A stretch of 64,000 nt of DNA from Pomacea canaliculata (lineage: Eukaryota > Mollusca > Gastropoda > Architaenioglossa > Ampullariidae), in NCBI RefSeq assembly GCF_003073045.1, contig NC_037590.1:5172016-5236015 (forward strand), read 5' to 3'. Positions 18,328 through 59,988 of this stretch are shown in pieces. The position numbers and the translations under genes were made by a program. Under the pieces are notes generated by a model that saw only the letters and a list, made by a program, of their open reading frames with translations, ran no database searches and was not told the origin of the DNA. The stretch's first letter is position 1, and every line of letters starts with the position of its first letter.

Positions 18328-18329
18328 AC

Positions 18330-19925: not shown

Positions 19926-19926
19926 T

Positions 19927-20118
19927 GTGAAGGGGGAGGGAGGATTTGGTGTTTTATCACTAGCCAGCAACTAAGCCTGTATCACAAGCAGGCAGCCCTG
20001 TAAACACATGCCACAAGCAGAGAAAAAAAGAGGGCCCGAGACGAGAGCTGAATCCAGGACGGGCAAACTTCACTGTACTGTTGACAGGCACTGACCGTAG
20101 CGCCACCGCCACTGCTGG
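19927..20118 (-). repeat. tRNA-derived SINE, diverged full-length copy
   Basis: Shows tail (tttggtgttttatcac, cagcaactaagcc), middle (atgccacaagcagag, gcccgagacgaga) and tRNA-like head (gcactgaccgtagcgccaccg) in the same order as the complete copies. Substitutions are numerous, so the copy is old. Confidence 0.75.
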
Positions 20119-22879: not shown

Positions 22880-23235
22880 GTTTGAGTCGGTCCAAGCCTG
22901 AAGCTCGTTGCGCTCAGCTGTGGGAAGCAAGTGGCTCAATCTGTTGATGGTGTGTCTTATTATCTTGTGGGTGATTGTGATGTGTTTTTCTAAGGGTTTT
23001 GAGAGAGGTGATAGAATTGAGATTAGGCGATAATGGATCCCCTAATTTATGTATTGGGATAACATTTTCTTGCTTTAGATGTGTAGGAAAGTAGGATTGA
23101 TGAATTCAGAGGTTGTACACGTAGGTCAAGGTTTCAGTAAAGGCCGGTGATGGGAGCTTTAGAATTTTGTTATCGATGCTGTCAGGCCCTCTGGTGTTTA
23201 TTTCTTTGAGTTGGGTAACTGCTTGATGTACTTCC
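22880..23235 (-). mobile_element. LINE reverse transcriptase fragment, 5' piece
   Basis: Minus-strand translation has TRGPDSIDNKILKL, TYVYNL, and a YFPxHLKQENVIPIHKLGD-type stretch, the start of a LINE RT domain, with stops. The palm region that should follow is missing; only the later LNPQKTEV part survives beyond the P-type insertion. Confidence 0.7.
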
Positions 23236-23930
23236 AAAAGGGTTAGGGTTACTCATTGAGATAAAGAAAGAGAGAAATAAAAAATCGGACTGGATGAAAA
23301 AACAACAATACAAGAAACCAAAACATCTTTCGAATGAAAAGCTGATGAGTTGGTAGATTTCAGCCAATTATTTGAACATGCTGCTTTATATATTTGCCTG
23401 ACTAACGTTCACAAATCATGAGACAGATCTTTTACAACGCTTCATACCACACTCACATTGCTAGTTAATTTCATTAATTTTTATTTGTTGCATTTAATGG
23501 TGGGTTACTGACGATGGGACAATTCAAGTGGTTCAAGAAGTAGACTTTTTTATTTCTATCACCGCTAGCATTCTACAATTGGTCTTTGCCACGTCGCCTG
23601 ACATGTAGTGTCTGACATAGTCTACATTACTAGATGTTTCAAAGACTTTCTTCTACTTTGTACTTTTCATATCCCACTGACCCGCCTTTGATAAAGTAAA
23701 CAACATGCTACGGAAGTGAAAAAAAAAACAACATTAGGACCTCGAACACTGAAGTTTGTTCTCATCGTCAATTCCAATACAGTAGCAACCACCCTAAATT
23801 TTAACAGGTAGATGTCAGTAGACTTGAGCTGGTTACATGGCGTCTTCACATTTCAATAGAGGCTTGTATTCAACATCGTCCAGTTTGAAGAGAAGTTGGA
23901 CGTGTGACATCGTGGATGTGACGTTCTTGC

Positions 23931-32389: not shown

Positions 32390-33810
32390 TAGAAGGACAC
32401 TTCGTTGGTGATTGCTAGATACAACCAATCCATGTATCTCTCCTCATAAACACTCTCAAACAACATATCTAAGCTGCAGGGGCAACATTTCACTTTTTAT
32501 TGAGCTTTTGGAGAACAGATGACAGCAGCCAAAACTGAAATCAAACCCTTTTCGATTCTACTGTTTGGAATTTTCAGCTAACTGCACTCTGTGGTAGTTA
32601 ACTGAAAAAAACAGGCATACCTGATACTCATTAACGATAATCGCTAGTTAAAACTGCATTTTATTCCTAGAATCTTTGAAGCAAAGCTGAATGCGTTGAT
32701 GCGTGTGTGTGTGTGCGCGCGCGCTTTGTTGTAAGCTATGCAAATTGACAAAATGTGCAGAAGTTTTCCATGTACGGGGAGGTCATACACTACGTTCATA
32801 AGTCTGGATCCTCCGCTCTATGCTCCATAAAATAAATCTACGTAGAACAAATTTTGACAACATGGTCGTCTGTCTTTCTCTCTCCATCAAACACACATAG
32901 AGAGAAAAAAACCACCTAGACAGACAAGATATATGCATGGCGGCCGGCAACACTACCATGTTTCTCTCTCTCTTTCGCTTCCCTGTACCCTTATATGTCA
33001 TCCCTACAAACAGTGAGCGATGTCAGCCTAGCAGGCGAAGGGTCATCAACCAGACAACACAAAGTGCTCTGGTTATTAATGCATTTTACGCAGTATTAGC
33101 TTCGTGCATATGTTCTTTGGTTTTTCTAATTTTCTAACCCCCTTGAAAGAGCAGGAACTTTTACGAATTTGCATGCTTTTCAGTAGCCACCTCATTAGAT
33201 TAAACTGCTCATTAGATTTGTTGTGTTACTATAACGTTTAAACATATGTCGACCCAAATATAACTTCTTTCTTATTACTTCGATAGTCTGCTGTACCAGC
33301 TTCTCCAAACTAACAATAATCGAGATCAGTGTCGAGTGTTAACACGATCAGTGTCGAGAAATGTATATGTCACAGTTTGAGACTTCAACAACTCCGTGCT
33401 CTTCAAAGTGATTCTAGAGGCAAAATACAACTGCTTAGAATGGCGTACAGAGTAGGATCCATTTGAATCTCGTCTAGTTTCCCGTCTCTTCATGTGGAGA
33501 AAGTTGAAGGTTTTGTAGCATGTTGTGTTCAATAAAAGAAATTACACAATTATTTCTCCTGTATTGTACTCTGTAATTGTATCTAAATATATTTTTGAAA
33601 CGTTGGACCGTCGCCACAGCTTTATCACAAGCCTTGAGTATCCTTTTCAACAGGAAAGTGCTTCCACATTGAGGCGATTTCACACTAAAGAGAGGGACAG
33701 GGGGGGTAGAGGAAATCAGAGGACCCGGAGAAATTTCCCGACGCTACTCCCACGGACAGGTGACACATACAGAGCGTGTCGCGAGACGGGATCTGAACCC
33801 TGCGTCTGGG
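32390..33810. other. No gene; short repeats only
   Basis: Holds a TG/CG run at 32702-32724, the inverted partner repeat at 33400-33545, and a tRNA-like repeat fragment at about 33700-33812 (acccggagaaatttccc, gagacgggatctgaaccc) resembling the piece near 4350-4430. Confidence 0.45.
33400..33545 (-). repeat. Interspersed repeat, inverted partner of 28185-28335
   Basis: See the partner entry. It adds about 30 bp of clear similarity near gaaagttgaaggtttt and gttgtgttcaataa. Confidence 0.55.
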
Positions 33811-33814
33811 AGTG

Positions 33815-34650
33815 AAAGATACTGTGTGTAAAGATAGCAATGTGTGTGTGAGTGTGTGAGTGAGAGAGAGAGAGAGAGAAAGATACTGTATGTAAAGATA
33901 GCAATGTGTGTGTAAGTGTGTGTGTGAGAGAGAGAGAGAGAGAGATACTGTATGTAAAGATAGCAATGTGTGTGTAAGTGTGTCTGTGTTAGTGAGGTAC
34001 TTTATGTAAAGATAGCAATGTGTGTGTGAGTGTGTGAGTGTGTGTGTGTGAGAGAGATACTGTATGTAAAGATAGCAATGTGTGTGTAAGTGTGTGTGAG
34101 AGAGAGAGAGAGAGATACTGTATGTAAAGATAGCAATGTGTGTGTAAGTGTGTCTGTGTTAGTGAGGTACTGTATGTAAAGATAGCAATGTGTGTGTGAG
34201 TGTGTCTGTGTTAGTGAGGTACTGTATGTAAAGATAGCAATGTGTGTGTAAGTGTGTCTGTGTTAGTGAGGTACTGTATGTAAAGATAGCAATGTGTGTG
34301 TGAGTGTGAGTGAGAGAGAGAGAGAGAGAAAGATACTGTATGTAAAGATAGCAATGTGTGTGTGAGTTGTGTGTGTGTGAGAGAGAGATACTGTATGTAA
34401 AGATAGCAATGTGTGTGTGTGTGTGTCTGTGTTAGTGAGGTACTGTATGTAAAGATAGCAATGTGTGTGTGAGTGTGTGTGAGAGAGAGAGAGAGATATT
34501 GTATGTAAAGATACCAATGTGTGTGTGAGTGTGTGTGAGAGAGAGAGAGATACTGTATGTAAAGATAGCAATGTGTGTGTGTGTGTGTGTGTCTGTGTTA
34601 GTGAGATACTGTATGTAAAGATACCAATGTGTGTCAATATGTGGCAATGT
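33815..34650. repeat. Minisatellite of about 45-75 bp units (TGTG/GAGA mixed)
   Basis: The core gatactgtatgtaaagatag followed by caatgtgtgtgt recurs about 14 times. Between cores lie variable blocks of either (GA)n or a tctgtgttagtgaggta spacer. The alternation of two spacer types gives a higher-order pattern. The His/Thr/Leu-rich frames seen on the minus strand are products of the repeat. Confidence 0.95.
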
Positions 34651-36850: not shown

Positions 36851-36878
36851 TTACTCCTCCTCTGGTGCTTCTTCTCCA
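36851..36878 (-). CDS. Exon 11: last coding micro-exon with stop
   Basis: Entered in phase 2 after cctgcag. With the preceding GG it reads Gly-Gly-Glu-Glu-Ala-Pro-Glu-Glu-Glu and TAA. Like the others it is Glu-rich. Confidence 0.7.
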
Positions 36879-39800
36879 CTGCAGGAAAACATAAATTCAA
36901 GGTTTCAAATACAGTAGTTCTCTAACGTATAAATTATACCTAAAATTTTATTATTTCTTAGAAGGACAAGAAAGGTAAAAACAATGCACCACAGATAAAA
37001 TCGAAAGTGAAAACATCAAATGTTGCCTTCAATTGACGTGTCTTGTTATTCCTGGATTCAGTAGTCTCTTAGACGGGAACCTACTTCGTTGGTTTGTAAC
37101 TCACAAACAGCAGCTACCCAATTTTTAGACGTGTGCGATGAGGTTTTTAAAAAAGTCTGCATTTAAAACAAGACACTTCTGTAAGACAGTGTCTCTGTGT
37201 CTCTATACACATCTACCAGACATATCCCCTGTCTCTGTCTCTGTCTCTGTCTCTGTATACACATCTGTTTGCTAAGCCCAAATACATGATATCGAGTCTT
37301 CGGTGCGCCTTTCCGTCTGTCAGTCCAATGGACAGCATGAAAAGGTCAGGTAGACGTTTGACCCTCCATCTCTTTACATTTCTGTCAGTCCCACCATCTC
37401 TCCGTTTTCAAATGCATGTCGGTTTGAATGTCGTATTTTCTGACTAGTAAAGTCCACTTACCCCTCTGCTGCTGATTCTTTTGACCTGCAACAGCAGATA
37501 TAAACATTCGCGCTTTCTTCAAAAGCATAAACGTTGAAATATGAAGTAAAATGCCTTAGCTTCTAATGAAGAGAGGAGAACAGCACAGTTGATATATATT
37601 TTAATAGGAACTTAAACTTACGACAGCTCCGATAAAACTGTAAGAACAACACAACGCATCTCTATTTTTTGTTGCTCTCCTTAACAAAGACGTAAATTTC
37701 TCGTTCTTAGCAGCTCTCATATATAATAGAGTAAAAAGATAAAATAAAAAAGTCAGTCAGTCAGCCACACAACCACACTCACACTCAACCACTCAGTGGC
37801 ATCGCAACTGATTAAAAGGTCTTGGGGAAAGATTTCTTCTTGGCGACTAGTTGTTTCTATTGGCAACCAGAGGGTAGGATTTGGAAATGGTGACGACGGG
37901 TTATAGTGGTCTGTGACATGGGAAGCTTTATTTGTTTCCTAATCTATACTCGTACCTCAGTTGTGCAGGCACCTGACATTTTTAAAAGCAAACTTTACTT
38001 TGAATAAATTTTCTAAAGATCATCAAAGCTGTGCTCCATTGTCACAGGGAGCGTTTATGTCGCTACTTTCCAACTAAATAATGTTCTTTGTCTTCAGCAG
38101 TTTCCCTTGAGAGGTGTGTCCTGTCTTACACGTACTAACAATAAAGTCGCCAGTGAAATACATTTCTCTCACACTGTCTTTCTGTCGTTTTCTTAGGAAG
38201 TTGTATTAGCCCTACCATTCTTCTCAACTTTTAACTTTCTTAGCAGTTCGATCTGTCGTCAGACGATGTCATAAACTATTCAAGATTTACAGTATATACT
38301 TACTCTTCGCTACCATCGGCACTTTTGTCTCCTTCCGATTCTTCCCTGCAGTAGAAAAGAAATCGCAAGTTAAGACAATATTATCAATATGGTAAATTAA
38401 GTAATTTCAGAAGCATTTTACAAGAAATTATATTAGCTTTCCATACGCAGATAATTTATTTCATTTTAAAGTAAAAGCATTGTCAAATACACTAAGAAGT
38501 GTGAAAACATGTCTTAAGATAAATATCATATAAGTATACAGTAAATATCAAGTCACCAGTAAAATACATTTCTCCCACACAGTCTTTCTGTCGTTTTGTT
38601 AGGAAGGTGTATTAGTCCTACAATTCTTCTCTACTTTCAAGTTTGTTAGCACTTCAATCTGTCGTCAGAAGATGTCATAAACTGTTGAAGGTATACAATA
38701 TTTACTTACTCTTCTCCGTCATCGTTCTCTCTGCAGTAGGAAAAAAATTTCCCAAGTTAAAACAATATCATTATCACGAACAAGCCTGGTTCAAGGCAGA
38801 ACTAGAGGTCAGACATGGGGTAGGTAATTATAGGTGGACAGCAGTCAGTATTAGCGGTCAGTACAGGGAAGCCTTTCTGTTGGTTTTTACCTCTTGACAG
38901 GTGGCCTTGACTGATGGAGGCGATGGAGGCCCAGGGTCAAGTTGGGGGGGATAAGATGAAGCTGTTTGGGGGGTATAGCGCGGTGAGCAGTAGTTTCCTT
39001 AGTGTTAGAGCGATAGCGACAGGGCCGGGTTGATTCGGTACCGAGGGGTCACGTGTTCTAGCAGTATATAGTTTAGAGTAGATGTTTAGGGGCCTTTTCC
39101 CAATACACCAGCAGGGACTACCGTCTCTGAGTGTAGGCAGCAAGTCTGAGGGAGGCCCGTTCCACGTGGACGCGTGGCGCTACTTGCTGGCACTAACAGT
39201 CTGGCACCGTGGAGACTGAGAGAGGGGTCTCCGTCCTCGCAGACGACAAGAAGGGGACACACCGTCAGAAGCGCGAACAGCAACTCTGCCACCCTCTGCC
39301 TGGGGCAACCGCCGGGGGTAGTGACTATACTGTGCCTGTGTATCCGAGGTCTTTGTCGTATGAAGCCGGTGCCGGACCACTGTCGCCTGAGATCGCCACC
39401 CCATCAGTCGTCCGTTGCCTGGGGCAACCAGAGGAGCAGCAGTGCCAGTGAGCTAGGGACAGTGCGTCACGAAACTCACTTCTAACGTCGTCGCCATCGT
39501 CATTGCCATGGGGCAACGGTGTGTGACCTGTGATCTCGGCCAGTAGTGACAGTAGTGTGCCGAGGCAGTTCTGCGACTGTCCACTACTGGGTGTCAAGGG
39601 GCAGCCTGTCGCGAGGACACTGCCGTGCTCCCAGGTGTGTCCAAGACTGGGGAGGTGTGAGTATCCGGGGGTGGGGGATGTTCGTCACACACAGACTCAG
39701 AGTGCTGGCAGGAAAGTGCGTTTGAATTTTGCTTTGTCTAACTTAAAGGGACCTGATGACAGATTGTGTATTCAGAGACCCGTACTGCGTCTCATATTAT

Positions 39801-42800
39801 TCAACCTTGTTTCTCTTATGATTATAATTTGTTTGTTGTACAACTGTCTTGCCGGTTGTATTTGCGCACGTGGGTGAGTGTGATTGTCGGTGTGTAAGCG
39901 TGTGGACGTGTCAATAGGTGGGTGAGTGGGTGTAGCGGACAAGTCTGTAGAGAGGGGGATGGGGGAAGGTTGGCACTTGTTGACCTCTTTTCGTGGAAAG
40001 CGTTGGCCACGAGTTCAGCGAACTCCACGTGCGGGTCGGACAGTGCTTACATCTGGTCGAGTGTGACTGGGGTGGGTATTTAACCCGAACGTAAGCGGCC
40101 AATGGGCTGCTGCTGCTGTTAAAATTGTGAATTTTTCACCGAGCCGCTGCTGTGGCTGTGGATTTATACCAAAGCCAAACTGCTGCTTCGGTTAGCAACT
40201 TTACCTAAGTTTGCGGAAGATGCTACGCCCTTCTGCTGCTGTGTGCGGAGAACAAGCGCCGAGCTGAAGGAGGGTTTCCAGAGGAAGGACAACCGGAGCT
40301 GGCGAGAAGGCGGTACGAATCCAAGCAGCGCTACCGAGAGTGTTGAGCGATTGGGCTCCACCTTCGCCCATTTCAGCGACGACAGCCCACTGACTACGGG
40401 GAGGGCCGTCGCGGCAGCGCGTGGAAGATAGACACGTCCGTGTGCACCGCGCCGTTACGTCCGGGGGACCTCTGACACAGGGCCTACGCGTGAGCTATCG
40501 GGGACGCCGACGAGTTTTCACAGGTGTCAGCGTTTTGAAAGTAAGACTTTCTTTTAAATTTTACATGTAGAAGGGGGGGGGGTGTCGTGCCCTCGTTGTT
40601 ACCTTCCACCTTCGTCTACAGGGTGTGAAGTAAAGACTGTTGATTAGATGGCTTGTCAACGAGCACATGCGATTTATTTTGTATTAGAAAAGTGCTGTAA
40701 GGGGCTCAGTAATTAGAATGATTAGAATCTGAAGTATTTTTCTTGAGCATCTTTCGTAACTTCTGTGGACTAAGTGTGCAGTCTTAGTTACTGCTTTAAT
40801 TTTGGCTGTGTGCGGTTGTGGCATTGACATTATTCGTGAGTGTGTAGAATTGTTTATTGCTTGGACTGCTTTGATGTAAAATTTATTGTATTTCTAATTA
40901 CACTTGACGTTTTCTTGGGCTTATTAAGCATAGGTCCGGGAAGGGACCTCCCAATCTAAAGTGATTTCGTGTTATTGATTTGTAAGAATGCGCATGTCCG
41001 AGTGGAGGTCGGGACAGTGGGTGTGAGGGCGGAAGTCGGGTGGGCGACCCATAAAGTAACCCCTTTACCTTCGGGCGAGTTAGGCCCATCCTTCTCCCCG
41101 CCTCGTTCGTCACAGTTATCAGTATGGAAATGTTAACAATTTCATGAGCATTTGACAAGAAATGATATTAGCTTTCCATAAGCAGATAATTGATTCCACT
41201 TTAAAGTAAAAGCATTGTCACATAAACTAAGAAGTGTGAAAATGTCTTAAGACATAAATATCAAGTCACCAGTAAAATACATTTCTCCTGCGCTGTCTTT
41301 CTGTCGTTTTGTGAGGAAGGTGTATTAGTCCTATTATTCCTCTATACTTTCAAGTTTGTTAGCACTTCGATCTGTCGTCAGAAAATGTAGTACACTGTTG
41401 AAGGTATACAATATTTACTTACCCTTCTCCTCCAGCTTCTTCTCTGCAGTAGGAAAAGTAATCCCAAGTTAAGACAACATTATCAATATTCTAACTTAAG
41501 GTAATTTCATTAGCATTTTACAAGAAATGATGCTATATTACCATACGCAGATAATTTATTTCATTTTAAGGTAAAGCATTGTCACAGAAACTGAGAAGTG
41601 TGAAAATAATATCTTTAGATATAAACATCAAATCGCCAGTGATTATCATTTCTCCTACACAAGGAGTATTTTTCTGTTGCTTTGTTATCTTAGTGGATTA
41701 GTCCTCCAACACTTCTCTACTGTCAGGTTTGTAAGCATGCCTGTCTGGCATCAGAAGATAAACTGTTCAAGGTATACAGTAAATATTTACTTACCCCTCT
41801 GGATTTTCGGCATTTCCTCTGCAGTAGGAAAAGTAATGCCAGGTTTAGACAATAATATCAGCCTTGTATATTAAGGTCATTTTACAAACCTTTTACCAGG
41901 AATAAGACAAGATTTCTTTAAATACTCTGTTGTGTTTTAAAGTAAAAGCATTGTCACAGAACGTTAATGAATATGATTAAAAAGTGTGTCTTATTGTTGG
42001 AAAATCATTTTAGAAGTTTTACAACTCAGGAATGAGACAAAAGTGTGTGAAAACATTAAGTCGCCAGTGAAATACATTTCTGTAACACTGGCTCTGCCAT
42101 TTTGTCAGTCCGGTGTATTAGTCCTACAATTATTCTGTACTTTCAAGTGTGTTGGCATGTCTGTCTGTGGTCATAAACTGTTCAAGGTATTCAGAGAGCA
42201 TTCACTTACCCTTCTGGAGCTTGTGCGGGACTGCAGTAGAAAAAGGTAAGCCAAGTTTAGACAATGATATTTATCTAATAACTGCTAAAAGCTGTAAAAG
42301 TAATTCCTAGAGCTTAGCTTGGGAGCGGAACCAGGCTTAGTTTGTGTTTGTGTGGAAGAAATCATGCGAAACACCTGAGGACGTGTTTGCAAAAAAAAGG
42401 CGAGCACGAGTGTCATGACACCTGTCCCGAATGTTTGTAAATTCACCGTCTTTAATTATTTTTCTTTTTTCATCTCAGAATATCGTTCTCCTCAATAATA
42501 ATCAGAGGATTTTAATAAAAATAATTTGTTTTCACATATCTAAATCACTCTGTCTCTTTTTTTCTGGCTGATAAGTTATCACAAAAATATTTACCGTTGG
42601 GCCTGCCGACGCTTTCTCCACACTAGGCACACACACAATGCTGCAAAATACCAAAGTTTAAAATATGATTGATAGATTGAGGCACTTTTGTGTCTCAGAT
42701 TCACAGTTTCTTGTTAAGTTTTATCATCAAGCTAGCTTGAATATTCAAACCTTCATGATTATCATCATGAGCAGCAGCAGCAACATGTCCTGTTAACCCT

Positions 42801-45800
42801 CATTAGCGTGGGGGAGGGACACTAAGTGTTCTGCACTTTTGTGTGACTTGAGGGTCCGATTGGCTGTTGTGTGGATTTTGTTTTCCTCTCTTTTACTGAT
42901 GCTTACCTAAAGGCAAGGACTTATAAACTCTTGATGTAGATCCGTGCCTACACTATTGACTCAGCCTGTGAGCGATACATCTATATCATTTGACATACAG
43001 ACATTGTAAAATATTCAGTTCAAGTTTCGATGTTTGCCACTCTTGAGACAATGGTAGATTATTATATCTTTTCTGTATTATTTTAATTATTCGGTTTCTG
43101 TCTAACTTTATTTATCATTAATATTCACATTTCTTCTGCTGTTTTCATTTAGTCGTTTTACCATATCACTTTCTATTTTGTCTTTGCCGTTTACCACGGC
43201 ATTGCTCTTGCCAGTGCTGATCTGATGTTTTCTACACGTGTCTGTCAGTCCGCTTGTAAGGTCTTACAGTTCGCTGCTGCTGATCGGTAGGTTTCGTAAG
43301 GAGAGGTCGACGCTGAGGTGGACAGAGGAACAACTGGCAGGACTGGTGATTCCATGTAGGACCTGCTCACCCTTACTTCAGACAGGCATGTGGTGAGCAT
43401 TGTAAGCCCGTACACTCGTTCTTCTGTTGTGCGTGCGTAGGTGCGTTTGTTCGTGCGTGGGAGCTAACATTCAATGGCATCCGATTTCCCGTTTAAAAAC
43501 TGAGACAAGAAACAACTGACTGGCGGTGGATACTCTTTCCTCAGGGTCTCATCTTAATTACTTCCTTCCATTATAAAAAGAAGACACACACATATTGCAG
43601 AACCAGCACGTGCCCTGTGACGTTCACGCATTATTTAACAAAGACTCACCAATCAAACCGGCAATGCCAAGTGCAATGAGAATAGCCGCCCATATCGGAA
43701 ATTCTTTCTCTGGTGCTGCAGTAGTTGGTGCCGCAGTAGTTGGTGCTTCAGTAGTTGGTGCTGCTTCAGTAGTTGGTGCTGCGGTAGTTGGTGGTGCTGC
43801 AGTAGTTGGTGGTGCGGTAGTTGTTGTCGGGTTTATTACTGATTCATTGAAGATTGAGATTAATAATAAACTTCATTAGCTGATATTCCGGACACTTACA
43901 TTTTGATCGAGAAAATGATTTCTAACAGATTTTCATTCTAGCAATAGTGATATCTAATAGTCGACAGCATTCAACATTTGTTACACTTTTACTTTCTGGA
44001 TATTAACTTGTATTATTCTCTCTCTTTTCAATTTACAAAATCTTAATCTCAAAAGAATGCTTCACTTGATTACAAACAACACTTTTATACATCTGGCCTA
44101 CACTTTAGTAAAAACACAATAGTATCTACCAATTCTAAGGTAACACAACCGACTGTACTTGTCGTCTGTTTTCTTTTGTTGCCAAACAGCAGCTAAGACT
44201 TGAGCCTTTTCACCATGTAGCCAGTCAACGAGCTTGTGCTAACTGTCTGATTGTAGTCAGTCATTACACGACCTTTCAACTGTATGTCAGTCTTGCTTTT
44301 CGCTTCTCACTCCAGCAAAAGACAGTGCCCAACCTTCCCTCTAGCAGTCTAGCATAACGTAGTAAACCTGGATGACTCTACATTATTTCTACAGGCCTCT
44401 TCCTTAGTTCACCATGCCTCTACCTCATTTCTACATGTCACTGCCTTATTTCTACAAGCCTCTACCTTATTTCTGCATGTCTAATCTCGATTTGTAGCTT
44501 TTCGTCATACTAAAGCTGTGTATGTAACTTTACCTCTAGCACTTCCTCCATCAAAACTGTGTGAACGTTACGAAGCTAAGCCCATGCTCAAGACAACTTA
44601 ATACTGAGCCCAGGGCATGTAAATGAAAGAAAGCAGCACCAGAAGTCCAGGACCAGATACCTCGTCAATTGTATATAATATCAATCATATACCTAATACC
44701 GTGTCTATAATATCAATCATAGACCTAGTCCCGTGTCTACAATATCAATCATAGACCTAGTAATGTGTATATAATAGCAATCATAGACGTAGTCACGTGT
44801 CTACAGTATCAATCATAGACGTAGTCCCGTGTCTACAATATCAATCATATCAAATTTCGAGAATATTTGCTGAACTGTGACAATCACAGACAACGCGCAG
44901 TGTCGACAGGTGCTGCCATGACATACGATGCACAGTGTCTGACAGTCGCTGACAGTAGTGTCTGTGTCTGGTCTCCAACATTTACTGACGACAGACAAGG
45001 AATCCAGTTATCTCGCACACAAAGGGGAAGAGTGAGGTGAGTGAGTGAGTTAGTGTGTGAGAGAGTCTTCTCTAAAAAATAGTATAACAACTTACTTTTT
45101 ATCTGACATGGTGGCATGGAGTTAATCAATATACAGTTTTTTTTTGTCATGATCCTCTCGGCAATATTCAAAACAATACATGCTTTCTCCGGAGTACTTT
45201 TGAGTTACATTGAAAGAGCAGGTATACGTCCTGTAGGTGTTCCCCTCAATACAGTTAGTCTCGCCAGTTGGTTTTCCAGTCTGGCAACTGCCATCACTCT
45301 CCGTATATAGCTTGCAAGCGACCAACGATTCAGAATTAGAACTAAACTGGAGCGTCCTTTCATTCCCGCAGTTGCTTTCACCACGTGTAGTGTGGTGAAT
45401 ATTACAACTCAGTGTGTGAATTGTGTTTAAATAGAAAGGGCCGTTACATGTCATGCTAAAGTTGTTTCCCTTTCTGTCTGAAAAAAATAAGATAAACAAT
45501 AATAATCATCAACAGTTTCTCTTGTGGATTTCAAAATTGACAAGAAATAGGATGTGCAAATATAATGTACTACGTAATTACTTGTTAGTAGGTACTAACG
45601 CACCTTCCTAACACTTGGCTTAATATCAAACACACAAGTCTTGTCAACTCTGTATGTGTGTATTGAAGTGGCCGACTCTTTATTCGCTGTTTTCTTGCTC
45701 TAGTTTTTGGAGGAGGTTTATTCGTTCGCACGTTTTAGGAGTCACGTGAGTTTAAATCAAAATATCGTCTGCAACGTTTTTCATTTTCATGTTGCTGTCG

Positions 45801-48800
45801 TTGAAATGGTAGTTAACTGACTTTATTCACCTACAACATATTGAGGGTTTTAGTAAGCGTAACATTCTATTGGATATTTAGGCTACATCTGACAAAGGAG
45901 GTCAATGTTTTTGAAACGAATCAATTTTCTCTGTTCGAATCTGACCATCGAGTCACCGAGCTGTCCTGTCGATTGTGTAAGTGTTTAGTAAGTGTGCATG
46001 GTCCTTACACCATTGTTGTCAAGCTGGCCATGACATGTGGACCACTTTAACAGCAAGAGCCTTACAAAAGGTGTCTCTCGCAGTTCCTACATTAGTAAGG
46101 GTTTACTGTCATTAGTTCGTAGACACTACAAACAAGGTAACACTATGGCGGTAACCGTCCTGGCAAGATATTATTATAATAAAGGCTACTTTACAAGGCG
46201 CAGCATCAACACCAAGATAAGCCGCACTCTCTGCGCAGACCAGTCATGATAACAGATAACAGAATAGATAACAGACAGCTGTGAGACAAGGGGCGCCCGG
46301 TAGTTAGAACACTCGCTTGGTACCACTGCAGTCAGTGGCTCAGGGTTTAGATCTCGTCTCGGGACAACTATTTCACACGTTGTTCCCAGGGCTGTGCGTC
46401 GGGGGTTTTCTCCAACCATAGTGAGAAATCGCCGCAAGGTAGAAGCCCTTTTCTACTAAAAAAAAAAGCAACCAACCAACGGTGGGATAAGTATAGGCAA
46501 ACTGAACAAAATAAAAATGTACAAGAGTAGAACCTAAAGCAATGGATGAAGGTATGAAGGGATTTAGATACTAGAAACTGTGTAAGATGGAGTTGTTACA
46601 TGATGGTTCACATAACAGACAATATTGCAAAAGGAGTTAAGGATAGAATTTCAGGGAAAGTACTTTAATTTGTGAGGGGGGGGGGTGAATTGGTGTTTTA
46701 CGCCGTGCCAGCAACTGAGGCTATATTACGGCAAGGCAGCCAGCCCTGTAAACAGATGCCACGTGCAGAGAAAGAACAGCGTGCCCGAGACGAGAAATGA
46801 ACTCAGGGCAGCCAACCTTCACTGTATTGATGACAGGCGCTAACCGTTGCGCCACCGGACCGCTCTTTAATTTGTGAACAGATATGTTTCCAGAAAGCTT
46901 TTAAATGTAGCCTTCGAGTCCTAGTGGCGAATGTGATTGTCATGAACAAGCCTGGTTCAAGGCCTGAACAACAGGGCCGACGTCGGGTAGATTTTATAGG
47001 TGGCCAGCGGACAGTAAAGAGAAGTCTTTCTGTTTTTGACAGGTCACCTTGATTGATGAAGGCGATGATGAAAACCCAGGAATGTGCGAGGGTAGGACAT
47101 AGCTGCTTAGGGGTATAGCGCGGTAGGTAGTAGTATAATATCGATAGCGACAGGGCAGGGTAGATTTGATTTTGAGGGTCACGTGATTAGAGAGGTATAT
47201 AGTTTAGGTTACATGTTTAGTACTAGGTGTCACATGGTCAGATTTGCGAGTCCGCACTTCTGGACTTTCTGAAGCTTATCAATGGATACTGTAGATGCCA
47301 GCAAGAAGAGAGTTGCAGTAGTCTACTGTATACAGAACAAATAAGCAGAGAAACCGTGAAATCAATCCTGAAGAAGGCAGATGATCCTTATTTAGCGATT
47401 AACACATATCGCGGTACGCCACTTCAGCAAGGTCTCAGTCCAGCAGAACTGTTGTTCGGGAGAAGACTACGCACCATGGTCTCCACCATACCATCTCAGT
47501 TTTCCGAGAAAAAGGAAAAGGAAAAAGAATGGAAGGACTTTCATAAGAAAAACGAGATGCAGAAGTTGAAACATAAACAGAACTTCGACAGAGCACACAC
47601 AGCCGCTGAGTTGGAACCAGGTCAGCCGGTTTGGGTGAAACCAACCCAGACACCAGGGACAATCATCAAGTCTCTGCCCAACAAGTCTGTGCGCAACAGC
47701 CGTCTCTTGATTCCCAGAGATCCCAATCCCGAGAATCCCAGACCTATCCCAAAGAATCTGTCATCCCTTATTCCAACAAACCCAAAGTCCGAAGAGGATC
47801 CCGACCCCTGGTCTGGTACACACTCAGACGTTCCTGTTGCCAATTTAGAGCCATGTCCAGGAGCCGCAGAAGAAAAGGTGCCAGCGTCCAAAGTCATCGC
47901 TCCTCCAGATCAGCCTGTCAAGACGACCAAGAGTGGTCGCACCATCAAGATCCCACAGAAACTTGACTTGTAAATGATTGACTCGAATCAAACGCACATA
48001 GACTTGAATAGGAAATTCAAGAATATTAAAAGTTGTGTTATAGTGTAAGAAAATTGCAAAAATAATAAATGCACTAACTAGGAAAGTTAGGCGTGGAGGA
48101 TACAGGCTAAAATTAATGTTAATTAAGTTAGGTTGAAACATTAATGTCCATTTTAACTAAAGAAAGGGAGATGTGACATAAGGCAAGTGTTGGCCTGATT
48201 CCGAAAATGTAAAAATCCGTTAAAGGTTTAGTTCCGTTTTGGTTGAGTATACTTGGGCGGGAGCCTACAAGAAGATGTCTCTTGTGCGTGGTCTGACTGA
48301 ATGAATGAAGGAGACTTATAACGCGCAAAATCCGAATCCCTTGGGAAACGCTCAATGCGCCGAAATGTTACAGAAAAGTACACCAATAAAACATTATCAG
48401 CTGCAGAAAACCAAAAGGAAAGTTAGAATCAAACGATCGGACGGCTAAAAAAGGACCACAGTTGTGAGCGAACGATCTGCTGCTACAAAGCGCATGACCA
48501 CTACTCACAACACAGGTCCACAAATCAGAAAAAGGAAAAAAAGGTGTTTGCATGGGCAAAAATGAAGGGTTAGATCATCAGATGCTTGGCCCTGCAGTAC
48601 AGTCCACAGTCCTCTTGACGAGTGCTGAGCTACATGCACTGTGGTCGTATCTCTGACCTGTATATAGCTGATCGATACAGGCCACACTGTCAAACTGCAC
48701 GATGACCCCCTCTGATGATTGTGATCAACATCTACAAGCCACATGATGTAAGTGTCTTTGTGTTGTTATCAACATCTACAAGCCACATGATGTAAGTGTC

Positions 48801-50177
48801 TTTGTGTTGCATTCTGCGAACTGACTGATCTACAGGCTGGATGTCGATCGCTCTCGCGTGCTTCACTCACTGTCACAGCGAACTTGAGTTGTAGTAAAGA
48901 AAGTGAAGCGACGATCCGTTTGTCATTGTATAATATGATAAGATTCCTTCATAGTCTTAAGATGTTCTCAGTATATTCTCAAAATTTTTCCGATGTCATC
49001 GATCCTTGTTATCTGGAGTCGTCGCCGTTAGATCTACAGTGATCGCCCTTATTAACCACAAATAACCACAAAACTACAAATAGTTTGCACTTCTTTCTCG
49101 TGGAACGGCTGAGACTCTCAGCTGTCAGTGTTAGTATCAGCTGCACAAAGGACTGTCAGTGTCCGCCATAGAAGCAAACTCCGAGAAAAGCTCTTGTATC
49201 GGAAATATCGTGTGGCAACAGCCTGTCCTCAGTGTTCACAGAACAGGAAAACAGGTTCTTGTTATCTGCACAATGGTGGGGAGGTGATGTCGATGGTAAG
49301 GCTGACTTGCTGGTGTACAATCAGGCAGTTTAGCAAGTCGTCTGCCCTGGGCCCGTACTGGATCTCAACGGCCCTGAGTTCAGATCTACAGCTCGGAAAG
49401 CCATAGTGTCGTCATACAGTAGCAACGCAGAATAGAGCAATGATGAAATCACAAAACAGGAAAACTGCATGAAAATTTTGAAAGCAAAGGACTGACTTGT
49501 GTGATCTTCAAGATCTTCAGAAAAAAAAACCGTTATGCAGAGAAGACCAGAAGTCGACGGAAAATCCGAAATCGCAGAAGAAACCAAAGTCAAATAGTCT
49601 TGCACAGCAACGACGAAACGAAAAAAAAAGCACCGGGCTAACCAATGGGCACCAAAAACACAGCAAACTATTAAAAATGCAAAAATTGCGGAGAACCGCC
49701 TCCCTCAAACCTGCCAGGCTAAGGGACGCTACTCACTAGAGAGTTTATTGAATGTCACCACTCATAATACCCACAAACCAATAACACCACAGTTGAGATG
49801 CACAGAGTATGACGAATGGAGCTGATCTTCCAGAGCTCATAGTACGCAGAACGACAGATGTGAGAGATATGTTCATCAAGAAACATGTCTAGAGGGGGTG
49901 TCGCTTTTTGCTTTGGCTTAGTTTTTTTTTTTTTTTTTTTTGCTTTTTTGTTGTAAGTTATAAGTCAAAGCACAGTGAAAGTAAAGAAATGTCAGAGTGA
50001 GTAGCAAGTTGTACAGATTGTGTACACTCATACAAACACAAGAGAAAGTAAAATCGGCTTACAGTCAAAATTGTGAAATATGGGGCACTTCGCGCCGTCG
50101 AAAGCCATCACTCCACGGATTATGCAGAGGATCACCAGCAAATGTGTCAAAGGGCTTGAGGAGTTTACAAACGCCAT
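36851..50177 (-). CDS. Single-pass membrane protein with Ig-like ectodomain and micro-exon tail
   Basis: Eleven exons are proposed: 50177-50063, 45477-45096, 43838-43650, 42640-42595, 42230-42210, 41818-41795, 41443-41423, 38730-38710, 38345-38304, 37485-37462 and 36878-36851. All have AG acceptors and GT donors, mostly gtaagt, and the phases chain as 1,1,1,2,2,2,2,2,2,2 once one homopolymer position is discounted. The product would be about 303 residues: signal peptide, cysteine-rich ectodomain, Thr/Ala/Pro stalk, a transmembrane helix with Arg/Lys stop-transfer, and a strongly acidic tail ending EEAPEEE. The role is unknown; a cell-surface or immune receptor is an inference from layout. Joining exon 1 to exon 2 across 4.6 kb is the least certain link. 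Confidence 0.72.
37462..42230 (-). CDS. Array of six symmetrical phase-2 micro-exons
   Basis: Exons 5-10 are 21, 24, 21, 21, 42 and 24 bp long. Each is divisible by three, starts and ends in phase 2, has a conserved ctactgcag-type acceptor (exon 10 has ttgcag) and a gtaagt donor. The encoded pieces are PAQAPEG, GNAENPEG, EEAGGEG, ENDDGEE, ESEGDKSADGSEE and SKESAAEG. Any one could be skipped or repeated without shifting the frame. This would let the length and charge of the tail vary by splicing or by unequal crossing-over. Coordinates were derived by hand from both splice sites. Confidence 0.75.
38776..41118 (+). mobile_element. Nested LTR fossil: older solo LTR-like element (outer)
   Basis: The outer sequence begins acgaacaagcctggttcaa and ends cgttcgtcaca. 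Without the inner insertion it is about 1.25 kb long. A short direct repeat (ttatc) flanks it, which suggests a target duplication. Its first 0.3 kb recurs at 46938-47226, showing that it belongs to a repeat family. It has no coding region and reads as an old solo LTR of an LTR retrotransposon, lying in the intron between micro-exons 7 and 8. Confidence 0.65.
39931..41016 (+). mobile_element. Solo LTR (inner), inserted in the outer LTR
   Basis: Runs from tgtagcggac to ggtcgggaca, 1086 bp, with TG..CA ends and 5-bp target duplications gtggg at 39926-39930 and 41017-41021. The start, end and the stretch with gggggatgggggaaggttg match the solo LTR at 55281-56395. It is a fossil left by recombination between LTRs and is younger than its host LTR. 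Confidence 0.85.
42595..42640 (-). CDS. Exon 4: end of transmembrane helix and stop-transfer
   Basis: A 46-bp exon entered in phase 1 after ttttgcag and leaving in phase 2 at gtaaat. It encodes ALCVCLVWRKRRQAQ, which completes the hydrophobic helix begun in exon 3 and adds the positively charged cytoplasmic anchor. It changes the intron phase from 1 to 2 at the start of the micro-exon array. Confidence 0.75.
43650..43838 (-). CDS. Exon 3: mucin-like stalk and first part of transmembrane helix
   Basis: 189 bp, phase 1 to phase 1, acceptor gaatcag and donor gtgagt. It encodes a run of about eight imperfect repeats of the type PTTAA/PTTEA, then EKEFPIWAAILIALGIAGLI. The Thr/Pro-rich part is a likely O-glycosylated stalk and the hydrophobic part leads into exon 4. 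The DNA repeat (agtagttggtgctgc) is a candidate for length variation. Confidence 0.8.
44668..44852. repeat. Tandem repeat of about 37 bp in intron 2
   Basis: Five imperfect copies of tatcaatcatagacctagtc followed by ccgtgtctacaa lie between exons 3 and 2 of the membrane-protein gene. Confidence 0.9.
45096..45477 (-). CDS. Exon 2: cysteine-rich, possibly Ig-like ectodomain
   Basis: The acceptor (T-run then ttcag) precedes a frame with nine cysteines over about 115 residues: MTCNGPFY, TLSCNIHH, SNCGNE, VACKLY, GSCQTG, TNCIEG, TYTCSFN, MYCFEYC. The LxC ... YxC spacing and N-linked sites (NFS, NVT) fit an Ig-like or related secreted domain, but I cannot prove the fold. As sequenced the frame stops at 45122, just after an A9 run near 45137-45145. 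With the run one base shorter, the frame would reach a perfect gtaagt donor (45095-45090) in phase 1, matching exon 3. Either the run is a sequencing error, or the allele makes a soluble product. Confidence 0.7.
46283..46480 (+). repeat. tRNA-derived SINE, second family, plus strand
   Basis: Begins with a tRNA-like head (gcgcccggtagttagaacactcgc, A-box-like) and a B-box-like agggtttagatctcg, then a body with gttgttcccagggctgtgcg and gggggttttctccaacc, and ends in an A-rich tail with caaccaacc. It lies in intron 1 of the membrane-protein gene. The head suggests derivation from a tRNA. Confidence 0.7.
46676..46864 (-). repeat. tRNA-derived SINE, intact copy with target duplications
   Basis: The minus strand starts gcggtccggtggcgcaacgg, a tRNA-like head with A box, and has a B-box-like region near gagttcatttctcg. 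It ends in the tail gctggcacggcgtaaaacac. A 13-bp direct repeat ctttaatttgtga flanks it (46663-46675 and 46865-46877). It is a recent, complete insertion. Confidence 0.88.
46938..48372 (+). mobile_element. Gypsy (Ty3)-type LTR retrotransposon fossil
   Basis: The parts are: a copy of the first 0.3 kb of the outer LTR family (46938-47226), a remnant of the pol C-terminal region (47235-47973) with integrase features such as NTYRGTPLQQGLSPAELLFG and a following GPY/F-like region, and a purine-rich tract (aaagaaagggagatg) at about 48157-48172. The start of a 3' LTR (tgtgacataa) follows, to roughly 48372. Gag, protease, RT and RNase H are absent. It is broken and reduced to a fragment, of moderate to old age. 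It lies in intron 1 of the membrane-protein gene. The LTR piece and the pol piece may come from different elements. Confidence 0.7.
48373..49128. other. Intron 1 sequence, no gene; short direct repeat
   Basis: A 42-bp unit (tgtgatcaacatctacaagccacatgatgtaagtgtc type) is repeated at about 48720-48760 and 48765-48805. No exon of the membrane-protein gene was found here. Confidence 0.5.
49210..49406 (+). CDS. Candidate plus-strand exon with VWC-like cysteines
   Basis: After a gtggcaacag acceptor an open frame reads ACPQCSQNRKTGSCYLHNGG and then LTCWC, ending at TAG. The C..C....C and CxC spacing with a Gly-Gly-Glu recalls the last block of genes B-F. No upstream exon was recognised and the acceptor is weak, so this could be chance. 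It lies inside intron 1 of the minus-strand membrane-protein gene. Confidence 0.3.
50063..50177 (-). CDS. Exon 1: signal peptide of the membrane protein
   Basis: The first true ATG of an open frame is at 50177. It encodes a 25-residue signal peptide (hydrophobic core THLLVILCIIRGVMA, cleavage likely after VMA), then FDGAKCPIFHNFD, and leaves in phase 1 at gtaagc (50062-50057). Exon 2 is entered in phase 1, so the two could join to give FDYRKGNN. There is no independent proof that they belong together. Confidence 0.55.
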
Positions 50178-56786: not shown

Positions 56787-59700
56787 CTTTGTTTGTTTAT
56801 TGGTGTTTTATGCCATGCCAGCAACTAAGGCTATATCATGGCAATAAAAAAGTTTTTATGTTTAAAAGTTTCAGGGTAAATTTTCTCCAGTTATTTAACT
56901 TAAAATCAGACCTCGGTAATTAGTTAACTAGATGTTAAAGAAACAAATATGGTGTAAAATGGGTGGTGGAGCCCAAAAAGGCCGCCAACAAAACAGAAAT
57001 TGAATAAGATATATTAGACTTAGATTTGTTGTAAAAGTCCTATTCTTTTTAAAAAACCAAAAATAGCTGCCGATGGGATGGACCTAAATAAAACATAATG
57101 AATTTACTGTATAAAATTGTTGACGAATGGTCTGAAGTTTTGGACAGTTTATGAGAAGGTGTACAACGTTAAGATGTCCCCCACACCAGGGGCAACCTGG
57201 TGGTTGTTCCCCTCGCAAGAGGTATCCTTGCGTGGCATATGTGTGTCCTGTCTTTAGTCTTGTTAGGACTACCTCCTCCCGCCTTGTGGTATGGCACAAA
57301 GGTGGGCGGTCAGAAAGACAGGGAAGAGTGGCGAATAATTTATTCTGACAGAGGGTGTTCCAGAGGTTTTGCCATAAAGTCAGTATGTAGGTTGTAAGTA
57401 AAGTTTTACAGTCAGATGAAATAAGGAACTGTATTTTACCAGGGGACTGACATGCAGCCTTGGCAGCCTGGTCTGCTCGAACATTGCCTGGAATGCCAGA
57501 ATGGCCAGGAGCCCAGATAAAGACAATGTCCTTGTTTCGTTCGATAAGTGCTGCATGAATTTTATGAATCTTGACCACAAGGGGGTGATCAGATTCATTT
57601 GAAATAAGAGCTTGGAGAGCAGAAAGAGAGTCTGAGATTATCAGAAAGTTGTGCTCCGAAGAGCGGTGAGCATGCTGCAAGGCAAGTATGATAGCATAAA
57701 GTTCTGCTGTAAAGATAGAACTTTCGTCTGCCAATCGGGCTGAAGCAGCCCGTTGTGGTTGGCAGGATGGAACTGCTGCCGCAGCGACTGGGCCACCACT
57801 TGGGATTTTGGAGCCATCTGTAAAGATTGAACAGAATTGAGGATAATCAGAAATAAGTTTACGAAAGTGTTGAAGAAAGATTGGGTCACTAGTGTTCCCT
57901 TTTTTGAAAGTTGTAAGATCAAAGCGAATCTCAGGAATAGGGAGAATCCAAGGAGGAGTTGTTTGTGGAGGTAAAGGCTCTACCTGCTTGATATCTACTC
58001 CGGCAGCTTGAAGATGAGGTGCTACTCGGAGTGAAAGAGGCTTTTGCTCCTTGGTACGAATGGCATACAGGGCAGCACGCTGAGGTCTAAAGACAGCACG
58101 ATACGCAGGGTTCCCAGGATGGGATTTTAAGCGACAGGCATACGATAGCATGAGTTTCAAACGACGGAGAGAAAGTGGAGGCTCTCCAGCTTCTGCGTAC
58201 AAACTTTGTACAGGAGTGGTGCGAAAGGCACCCAGACAGATGCGGAGCCCTTGATGATGAATTGGATCAAGAATTTTAAGGTAGGACTCTCGAGCAGAGC
58301 CATAGATAATGGATCCGTAGTCTAGCTTTGAGCGGATCAGGGCACGGTAGAGACGTAGCAGAACCGTGCGATCCGCTCCCCAGCTGACATGGCCAACTAC
58401 TCTAAGAATGTCCAAGGCTTTCTGACAAGATAGGCGTAGAGATTTGATATGAGGTAGAAAAGACAGTTTACGGTCAAAGATGACCCCAAGAAATTTAACC
58501 TCTTGGACCACCTTGAGTACCGTGCCTTTGACAGTGATAGAAGGGTTTGGAAACATACCTGTCAGTTTGCAAAAGTGGATGCATACTGACTTCGTAGGAG
58601 AGAAATTGAAGCCGTTTTCTGTCACCCACTTTTGTACTGCATTTACGCACAGCTGAAGCCGGCGTTCGAGGCATGGAAGGGAGCGGCCTCGTATGCAGAT
58701 AGCAAAGTCATCTACATACAAAGAGGCCTCTAAACCTGGACAGACTGATTTCAAGATTGAGTCGATTTTGATGTTGAAAAGAGTTGGAGAAAGAATGCTG
58801 CCCTGAGGGACGCCCATTTCCTGTTCCTGAGGATCAGACAGTATAGACCCTACTCTGACTTGAAAATGGCGGTTTGAAAGAAAATTCTCAATGAAGAGTG
58901 GCATACGACCCCGGAAGCCCAGGGCATGGAGGTCTAACAGAATACCCGCTTCCAGGTAGTGTCGTATGCCTTCTCTAAATCAAAAACACCCCTAGAACAT
59001 GTTCTTTGCCGACAAAAGCGTCCCTGACAAAGGTTTCAAAACGGACCAAATGGTCCAGGGTGCTGCGGCGTTTTCTGAAGCCACACTGCAGGTTGGAGAG
59101 GAGACTCTGAGATTCGAGGTACCAGGTAAGGCGAGCATTTACCATACGTTCTAGAGTTTTACATAGACAACTAGTGAGAGCGATAGGGCGGTAAGAATTT
59201 GGATCAGAGGTATCCTTACCAGGTTTGGAATGGGTATAACTACTGCCTCTCTCCACGAGGGGGAAAACAGCCGGATACCCAAATAAAGTTGAAGATATCT
59301 AGAAGGAGAAGGAGAGAAGACTGTGGAGATGTTTTAGTAGCTGATAGGAAATATTGTCAGGACCCGGTACAGAATCCTTGCACTTTTGAAGGGCCTGTTG
59401 TAGTTCAGAAAGAGAAAAAGGTAGGTTGTACTTTTCGGAGTTGTCTGAAGAAAAGTCACAACCCGATGATTCTTGGACAGATTTTAAGCGTTGAAAATCT
59501 GAAGAGTAGTGTGAAGAGGAAGAATTATGAGCAAAGGTGGATGCTAAGGAATTTGCGACATCCTGTACCTCTGTGAGAAAAGAGTCTCCAACCCGCAGAT
59601 GGCCTATTGACTGAAATCTTCCCTTTATCTTCCTTATGGCCGCCCACACCGCTTGAGAAGTGGTACGGGAGGATAATGAGGACATAAATCTCTGCCACGC

Positions 59701-59821
59701 AAGTTTCCTTGCCTGTTTAAAAATATAACGGGTATGAGCTCGGGTACGTTTAAAATTTATTACATTTTCAGGAGTGGGTTGACGGAAGGCAAGACGCTGG
59801 GCTTTTTTCCGCGCACAACAG
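56787..59821 (-). mobile_element. RNase H-bearing LINE (I/Jockey-group), 5'-truncated
   Basis: Minus strand, in order: pre-RT linker and RT start (59815-59299, with CARKKAQRLAFRQPTPENV and VPGPDNISYQLL), RT fingers (59256-58975, KPGKDTSDPNSYRPIALTS, LQCGFRKRRSTLDHL), RT palm to RNase H (58904-57084, 606 codons), 3' UTR and a tail at 56787-56850. The three frames are separated by two breaks, so it is dead. The 5' end abuts the EGF-like exon at 59822. The tail (minus strand gatatagccttagttgctgg then aaaacaccaataaacaaac) matches the tail of the SINE family in this window. Confidence 0.88.
57084..58904 (-). CDS. LINE ORF2 C-terminal part: RT palm/thumb, RNase H, zinc knuckle
   Basis: The frame opens within the RT domain. 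GVPQGSILSPTLFNI (about residues 31-45) and YVDDF (about 65) are the RT palm motifs with intact catalytic aspartates. KFLGVIFDRKLSF is the thumb-proximal motif. RNase H follows from about residue 360: FTDGSK, FTAELYAI, SDSLSAL, and NVRADQAAK, which carry the D-E-D-D catalytic set. A CxxC..H..C knuckle (CPWCGGHLNVVHLLINC) ends the protein. A 606-codon open frame in an otherwise broken element means a recent loss of function. The initial Met is not a real start, since upstream RT lies in another frame. Confidence 0.88.
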   Translation of the reverse strand: MPLFIENFLSNRHFQVRVGSILSDPQEQEMGVPQGSILSPTLFNIKIDSILKSVCPGLEASLYVDDFAICIRGRSLPCLERRLQLCVNAVQKWVTENGFNFSPTKSVCIHFCKLTGMFPNPSITVKGTVLKVVQEVKFLGVIFDRKLSFLPHIKSLRLSCQKALDILRVVGHVSWGADRTVLLRLYRALIRSKLDYGSIIYGSARESYLKILDPIHHQGLRICLGAFRTTPVQSLYAEAGEPPLSLRRLKLMLSYACRLKSHPGNPAYRAVFRPQRAALYAIRTKEQKPLSLRVAPHLQAAGVDIKQVEPLPPQTTPPWILPIPEIRFDLTTFKKGNTSDPIFLQHFRKLISDYPQFCSIFTDGSKIPSGGPVAAAAVPSCQPQRAASARLADESSIFTAELYAIILALQHAHRSSEHNFLIISDSLSALQALISNESDHPLVVKIHKIHAALIERNKDIVFIWAPGHSGIPGNVRADQAAKAACQSPGKIQFLISSDCKTLLTTYILTLWQNLWNTLCQNKLFATLPCLSDRPPLCHTTRREEVVLTRLKTGHTYATQGYLLRGEQPPGCPWCGGHLNVVHLLINCPKLQTIRQQFYTVNSLCFI

Positions 59822-59988
59822 ACATCATGCCAAACAGAGTAGGTGGTCTCTGTAAGACAGATACAGCAGGCAGCCAGGGTACTTGTGGAGACAAGGCCGT
59901 GTGTAGCGCCACAGCTAATGGAGTCTGTCAATGTCCTCCAGGGTACCAGGGCCAAACATGGAGACACTGTGTGCAGTTAAGTCGTTAA
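59822..59988 (+). CDS. EGF-like terminal exon, copy 1
   Basis: Entered in phase 1 after acaacag, it encodes IMPNRVGGLCKTD, GTCGDKAVCSATANGVCQC and PPGYQGQ, then diverges to WRHCVQLSR and TAA. The six-cysteine EGF pattern is complete. Compared with copy 3 the last residues are in a different frame, yet the last Cys survives. Its 3' UTR (gttaaaattaaattatactt) matches that of copy 3. The upstream intron has been replaced by the LINE, so this copy has probably lost its gene. Confidence 0.65.

What the first reader, a model, noticed from the sequence alone, without database searches (positions are those of the whole stretch)
36851..50177. Membrane protein gene whose acidic cytoplasmic tail is spelled out by a run of micro-exons
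On the minus strand I can chain a signal peptide, a cysteine-rich ectodomain, a Thr/Pro stalk, a split transmembrane helix and a tail made of six 21-42 bp phase-2 exons plus a 28-bp last exon. Splice sites and phase agree at every joint except one homopolymer. The exons are too short for standard gene finders, so the gene is probably unannotated. Seen: splice sites, phases, motifs. Inferred: that all pieces form one transcript and that it is a surface receptor.
Basis: partly seen in the sequence, partly recalled or inferred. Interest (0 to 1): 0.85.

Follow-up and report, generated by a model that had tools for sequence, protein, structure and literature searches.

The report
Snail membrane protein with micro-exon tail
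A stretch of snail DNA holds what looks like an unannotated cell-surface protein gene whose acidic inner tail is written in very short exons, most of them copies of one small exon-plus-intron unit repeated in a row.

Summary
On the minus strand, 11 pieces chain from a signal-peptide exon (50177-50063) to a TAA stop (36853-36851), with 10 of 10 introns GT-AG. They include a transmembrane helix split by an intron and six micro-exons of 21-42 nt, all multiples of three. A splice-matrix scan of 64 kb gave 8 minus and 4 plus candidates; six of the 8 are these micro-exons, against a Markov mean of 0.1 for their region. New here: m5-m9 are tandem copies of one exon-plus-intron cassette, 375-412 bp apart except where an insert of about 2.3 kb lies between m7 and m8. 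Splice sites are best conserved (0.94), downstream introns less (0.78), exon bodies least (0.64). The tail is acidic (25 of 60 residues, no aromatics). A nine-A run in exon 2 breaks the frame as assembled. Two word-based searches of 5.8 billion proteins found no relative, although Pomacea proteins are held there. The ectodomain fold is undetermined; receptor function and alternative splicing are inferred. I rate it a new variant of a known kind: a micro-exon layout, as in schistosome MEGs or troponin T, in a snail membrane-protein tail.

The parts
50063..50177 (-). Exon 1: ATG, predicted signal peptide MAFVNSSSPLTHLLVILCIIRGVMA (cleavage site judged by eye) and first ectodomain Cys
   Evidence: hydrophobic windows within residues 2-31; donor weak (1.2); no coding periodicity signal (250 of 1065 windows as high)
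45096..45477 (-). Exon 2: Cys-rich ectodomain (9 Cys in 110 residues before the homopolymer, 2 more after it), two N-glycosylation sequons (NFS, NVT)
   Evidence: acceptor 5.8, donor 4.3
45137..45145 (-). Run of nine A inside exon 2 that breaks the frame as assembled
   Evidence: no donor of the needed phase in E2 scores above 0.1
43650..43838 (-). Exon 3: Thr/Ala/Pro stalk (tandem repeat in DNA) and first half of the transmembrane helix
   Evidence: tandem repeat 43711-43823; acceptor weak, -3.1
42595..42640 (-). Exon 4: second half of the transmembrane helix and basic stop-transfer WRKRR
42210..42230 (-). Micro-exon m5 (21 nt), cassette copy 1
41795..41818 (-). Micro-exon m6 (24 nt), cassette copy 2
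41423..41443 (-). Micro-exon m7 (21 nt), cassette copy 3
38777..41115 (.). Insert of about 2.3 kb that splits the cassette array; a stretch at its end (39089-38764) recurs at 47220-46930 in intron 1, so a dispersed repeat is likely
   Evidence: cassette homology stops at 41116 and resumes at 38776; boundaries approximate
38710..38730 (-). Micro-exon m8 (21 nt), cassette copy 4
38304..38345 (-). Micro-exon m9 (42 nt), cassette copy 5; its two 21-nt halves are not alike (6 of 21)
37462..37485 (-). Micro-exon m10 (24 nt), flanks not detectably related to the cassette
36851..36878 (-). Exon 11 (28 nt): last codons and TAA stop
   Evidence: first AATAAA downstream on this strand at 36005

Best explanation
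This is a gene of a Pomacea-like snail for a single-pass (type I) cell-surface protein: signal peptide, Cys-rich extracellular domain, Thr/Ala/Pro stalk, one transmembrane helix, and a probably disordered acidic cytoplasmic tail. The tail grew by tandem duplication of a cassette of about 0.4 kb holding one phase-symmetric micro-exon (21 nt in three of the five copies) and its intron flanks; in-frame changes made 24- and 42-nt versions. Because all six micro-exons share phase 2, any of them can be gained, lost or skipped without shifting the frame, each adding 7, 8 or 14 residues to a tail that is acidic overall. The tail therefore most likely acts as a length- and charge-tunable spacer or docking segment and not as a tyrosine-based signalling tail, since it has no aromatic residue. 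Shown: exon anatomy, splice sites, phases, cassette duplication, composition. Inferred: that E1-E2 belong with E3-E11, expression, alternative inclusion, disorder, surface recognition role.
For: Exact exon chain, phases and stop. The splice-matrix scan picks out the six micro-exons, all multiples of 3, against a null mean of 0.1. The acceptor motif TTTTCCTACTGCAG with up to 2 mismatches occurs 5 times in 64 kb on both strands, 5 of 5 at m5-m9. Cassette homology among m5-m9 in eight alignments of 121-643 bp at 65-87%, besides two short rows of 26 and 44 bp. Splice consensus is the best conserved part of the cassettes, 0.94 against 0.78 downstream intron, 0.71 upstream intron and 0.64 exon, as expected if splicing is maintained by selection. 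Net exon length differences between copies are 3, 18 and 21 nt. Hydrophobic windows only within residues 2-31 and 209-237. Tail 25 of 60 acidic, 3 basic, 0 aromatic.
Against: The nine-A run in exon 2 breaks the frame as assembled. E1 has no independent coding signal, its donor is weak (1.2) and the E3 acceptor is weak (-3.1). No protein relative was found. A second reading frame is also open from within E4 through E11. The scan's cut-offs were set after seeing the gene's own scores. No transcript could be examined.
Confidence: 0.66

Rival explanations
1. Pseudogene: a once functional gene of this build that has lost its frame in exon 2, with the micro-exons still readable because decay is recent.
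For: Nine-A run breaks the frame, and the assembled reading ends in TAA before the E2 donor. No protein relative found. Weak E3 acceptor.
Against: The break is a single register change in a homopolymer, where assembly errors are common (general knowledge). 10 of 10 introns keep GT-AG, and apart from this break the chain is open to its TAA. Splice sites are conserved above flanks between copies.
Confidence: 0.17
2. Two unrelated pieces: the tail exons E3-E11 are a real gene part, but E1-E2 belong to something else or are not coding, so the true N-terminus lies elsewhere.
For: E1 has no coding periodicity signal (250 of 1065 windows as high) and E2 a modest one (24 of 1062). Introns 1 and 2 are 4585 and 1257 bp, intron 1 with repeats. 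E1 donor and E3 acceptor weak.
Against: E1 gives a hydrophobic leader ending at a plausible cleavage site (by eye). The E1/E2 phase fits, and so does E2/E3 in the frame behind the nine-A run. The mature model has 12 Cys, an even number. I made no scan for ordinary-length exons that could replace E1-E2.
Confidence: 0.2
3. The micro-exons are not exons but a tandem intronic or intergenic repeat whose units happen to carry splice-like motifs.
For: m5-m9 are tandem repeats, so the recurrence of splice-like motifs in five of them is not independent. A second frame is open across them too.
Against: Splice motifs are more conserved than the rest of the unit. Net exon length differences are multiples of 3, while intron gaps are of mixed sizes. 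m10 and E11 lie outside the repeat and continue frame and composition. The reading frame leads straight from a transmembrane helix with a stop-transfer signal.
Confidence: 0.07

Closest known systems
Schistosome micro-exon genes (MEGs)
   Same: Many very short exons, mostly multiples of three, between much longer introns, hard for automatic annotation, signal peptide at the N-terminus (abstract and passages of PMC10526429); very small symmetrical exons (passages of PMC4350168). An exon duplication associated with a transposon insertion is mentioned for MEG-3 (PMC4350168).
   Different: MEG products are described as secreted (PMC10526429), and most of their coding region is micro-exons (PMC4350168). 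Here the micro-exons spell only the cytoplasmic tail of a predicted membrane protein, the animal is a snail, and no direct sequence comparison with MEGs was made beyond the general searches.
Vertebrate fast skeletal troponin T (TNNT3), 5' alternatively spliced exons
   Same: Run of exons of one phase class at one end of the protein, alternatively spliced (abstract of PMC2447309). Acidity of that region is recalled; unusual divergence of those exons is known to me only from the title of a reference listed there.
   Different: Intracellular muscle protein (recalled), 5' end of the gene; the exons there are suggested to come from exon shuffling, while here five are demonstrable tandem copies.
Biomphalaria GRC/PTC2 single-pass transmembrane (TM1) proteins
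   Same: Snail single-pass membrane proteins; those of PTC2 have 166-530 codons and no known domain apart from the transmembrane segment (passages of PMC7494358). The present model, about 300 residues, would fit that description.
   Different: No sequence relation tested or shown; the word 'exon' does not occur in the main texts of PMC7494358 and PMC11426442, so their gene structure could not be compared; no polymorphism data here.

Membership tests
Type I single-pass membrane protein | N-terminal hydrophobic leader and one further transmembrane helix followed by basic residues | tested here: met
   Kyte-Doolittle windows above 1.6 only within 2-31 and 209-237, then WRKRR; no dedicated topology predictor was available
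Micro-exon gene organisation | Several symmetric exons of a few to 81 nt, multiples of three | tested here: met
   21, 24, 21, 21, 42, 24 nt, same phase; size range from PMC10526429. Sequence evidence only, no transcript
Schistosome MEG family | Secreted product with most of the coding region in micro-exons | tested here: not met
   The model has a transmembrane helix, and E1-E3 (686 of 913 nt as assembled) are ordinary exons
Schistosome MEG family | Alternative splicing giving variant proteins | not testable with these tools
   no transcripts available
Immunoglobulin superfamily (considered for the ectodomain) | Ig fold or Pfam Ig domain | tested here: inconclusive
Biomphalaria GRC/PTC TM1 genes | Sequence relation to GRC or PTC2 genes | not tested
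   their sequences were not compared directly; no relative of any kind found
Tyrosine-signalling (ITAM/ITIM) receptors | Tyrosine motif in the cytoplasmic tail | tested here: not met
   tail has 0 F/W/Y in 60 residues

The most novel reading that the evidence does not exclude
A snail receptor gene uses a tandemly amplified micro-exon cassette as a combinatorial splicing module: up to 64 tails of graded length and negative charge from six independently skippable exons. The exon bodies of the cassette diverge faster than their own introns while the splice sites are held, so that the inner tail, not only the outer domain, is under diversifying pressure.
Probability: 0.2. Interest if true: 0.65.

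Novelty: new variant of a known kind. Interest (0 to 1): 0.42.

Why it matters
If true, standard gene finders may miss or truncate a class of snail membrane proteins by dropping their cytoplasmic tails. It also shows a clear route by which micro-exon arrays arise: tandem duplication of an exon with its intron flanks. I know the layout mainly from schistosome secreted proteins and troponin T; finding it in a snail surface protein would suggest that it evolves repeatedly and would give a readable case of how splice signals and coding sequence evolve at different rates.

Tried and rejected
Ig-fold assignment of the ectodomain: I suspected it from a Cys and Tyr-x-Cys pattern (recalled), but Pfam, PDB sequence search and a low-confidence model gave no support. 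Not claimed. Pfam gave six families, all below their cut-offs; two touch the ectodomain: PF03409 Transmembrane glycoprotein (residues 64-194, E 0.064, 12.6 bits against a cut-off of 27) and PF24300 KWL1 (97-131, E 4.1). I did not build on them.

Simple positive selection on the micro-exons: a first comparison trimmed the exon ends and was unusable. A second, with exons held to one in-frame gap, put exons below downstream introns in 10 of 10 pairs. With the same gapped alignment for exon and intron the contrast shrank: exon below downstream intron in 10 of 10 pairs and below upstream intron in 8 of 10; in 4 of 10 pairs no same-length downstream window was as low, but in the other 6 pairs between 11 of 138 and 74 of 137 windows were. 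In one search the m7/m8 cassettes aligned freely had no 21-column window below 17 matches, the exon being aligned there with compensating one-base gaps. Codon counts gave pS 0.61 and pN 0.41 over the ten non-independent pairs, so silent sites are raised too. Conserved intronic splicing elements or gene conversion in the introns explain this at least as well as positive selection.

First splice scan used per-site thresholds too strict for this gene (1 candidate, then 0 and 0); one search used a summed score with cut-offs of 9, 10 and 11 chosen after seeing the exon scores (lowest 10.1). The site frequencies are approximate and recalled from general knowledge. At a sum of 10, one of the 4 plus-strand candidates (38098-38113) lies in the same region.

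An alternative donor in exon 2 that would bypass the nine-A run: none scored above 0.1 in the needed phase. Further cassette copies: none beyond five by the acceptor motif. Paralogues of the ectodomain in the window: none convincing, best other match E 1.2. m9 as an internal doubling of 21 nt: not supported, 6 of 21 matches. Rfam at gathering thresholds and tRNA: nothing. Literature: no paper with 'Pomacea canaliculata' and 'microexon'; 'microexons' and 'gastropod' in 3 papers, judged from the listing only and none on this subject; other searches, seen as listings except for the papers named in the report.

Full report
What was checked. The finding describes a minus-strand gene at 50177-36851. 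I re-derived each exon from the sequence. The pieces are E1 115 nt, E2 382, E3 189, E4 46, then micro-exons m5 21, m6 24, m7 21, m8 21, m9 42, m10 24, and E11 28 nt ending in TAA. 10 of 10 introns are GT-AG. From E3 on, one frame runs through all joints: a Thr/Ala/Pro stalk, a helix (WAAILIALGIAGLIALCVCLVW) split by the E3/E4 intron and followed by RKRR, then an acidic tail ending in GGEEAPEEE.

Origin. A reverse-transcriptase ORF in the window (57084-58979, minus) is 96% identical over 80% of its length to a protein named Pomacea canaliculata. The window is therefore probably from Pomacea or a close relative. The species itself was not established.

Is it more than chance? I scanned the 64 kb on both strands for exons of 12-60 nt bounded by good splice sites (matrices approximate and recalled, cut-off set after seeing the gene's own scores). 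At a summed score of 10, there were 8 candidates on the minus strand and 4 on the plus strand. Six of the 8 are the six micro-exons, the only ones on the minus strand of their 5.85 kb region (one plus-strand candidate, 38098-38113, also lies there); all six are multiples of three. A Markov-1 null of that region gave a mean of 0.10 and at most 2 in 300 runs. At a cut-off of 9 there were 8 minus and 8 plus candidates, 6 in the region on the minus strand, and a null mean of 0.26. Five of the six are copies of one another, so they are not independent; that does not explain m10, E11 or the conserved sites. Coding periodicity is strong for E3 (1 of 1064 windows as high, but E3 is repetitive), modest for E2 (24 of 1062) and absent for E1 (250 of 1065). 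E1 and E2 are thus less secure than the tail.

How the tail was built. Self-comparison shows that m5, m6, m7, m8 and m9 each sit in a copy of the same cassette of exon plus intron flanks. Spacings are 412 bp (m5-m6), 375 bp (m6-m7) and 385 bp (m8-m9), with 2.7 kb between m7 and m8. That gap holds an insert of about 2.3 kb, part of which recurs in intron 1. The acceptor motif TTTTCCTACTGCAG with up to two mismatches occurs five times in the window on both strands, 5 of 5 at these exons. In pairwise alignments of the cassettes (multiple alignment) the splice consensus is most conserved (mean identity 0.94), then downstream intron (0.78), upstream intron (0.71) and exon body (0.64). Net exon length differences are multiples of three, so the frame is kept.

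Exon divergence. Exon bodies are less alike than the downstream introns in 10 of 10 pairs and than the upstream introns in 8 of 10. In 4 of 10 pairs no same-length downstream intron window is as low; in the other 6, between 11 of 138 and 74 of 137 windows are. The pairs are not independent. Silent and replacement differences are both high (pS 0.61, pN 0.41), so I do not claim positive selection. Introns kept alike by splicing elements or by gene conversion would look the same.

The protein. It has a hydrophobic leader, 12 Cys in the mature ectodomain model, two sequons in the mature part, a stalk rich in Thr, Ala and Pro, one helix, and a 60-residue tail with 25 acidic, 3 basic and no aromatic residues. 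Pfam shows six hits, all below cut-off; two touch the ectodomain (PF03409 Transmembrane glycoprotein, E 0.064; PF24300 KWL1, E 4.1) and four the stalk, helix and tail. No PDB sequence matches the ectodomain. The protein database gave 33 candidates with none at E up to 1 (residues 1-168 scored), and 2 candidates with none at E up to 10. Between them these cover protein lengths of roughly 86-528 residues; a relative sharing no five-residue word would be missed. A single-sequence model of 110 ectodomain residues is beta-rich but has pLDDT 53.7, and fold comparisons are weak and mixed.

The frame break. Exon 2 holds nine A in a row at 45145-45137. Read as assembled, the frame stops at 45124-45122. 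No alternative donor in exon 2 with a fair score restores it. A miscounted homopolymer is the simplest account; a recent pseudogene is the main rival.

Mechanism and place among known things. I think it most likely a surface protein whose tail length and charge can change by gaining, losing or skipping symmetric micro-exons. The layout works like that of schistosome MEGs (passages of PMC10526429 and PMC4350168) and of the 5' exons of troponin T (abstract of PMC2447309). I do not file it as a member of either: the MEG features of secretion and mostly micro-exonic coding are not met, and membership in troponin T is ruled out by the whole build of the protein. Snail single-pass membrane proteins without known domains, in regions tied to parasite resistance, are known in Biomphalaria (passages of PMC7494358). 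Whether this gene is related to them was not tested.

Limits. No transcript, no second genome and no own-genome search could be had: the genome search did not answer in six tries.

Noticed in passing
window 13043-25207, minus strand: Three repeated pairs of short Cys-rich ORFs with similar motifs, seen by eye in the ORF list (such as YNHGDIFTGHNPC.KYRCEFG and TYRCT+R), looking like a small tandem family of secreted Cys-rich proteins; no Pfam match at E 0.01 for the six ORFs scanned.
   Followed up: partly
window 57084-59298, minus strand: LINE-type reverse transcriptase; the ORF 57084-58979 is 96% identical over 80% to a Pomacea canaliculata protein.
   Followed up: yes
window 38777-41115: Insert of about 2.3 kb inside the micro-exon array; part resembles 47220-46930 (70% over 331 columns).
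   Followed up: partly
window 59680-59988, plus strand: ORF with weak EGF-like matches, all below Pfam cut-offs.
   Followed up: partly
window 21777-22913, minus strand: ORF with a transposase RNase H C-terminal domain (PF21789, E 4.3e-11), probably a DNA transposon remnant.
   Followed up: partly
window 33810-34634: Tandem array of a 52-64 bp unit with GT/GA-rich parts.
   Followed up: no
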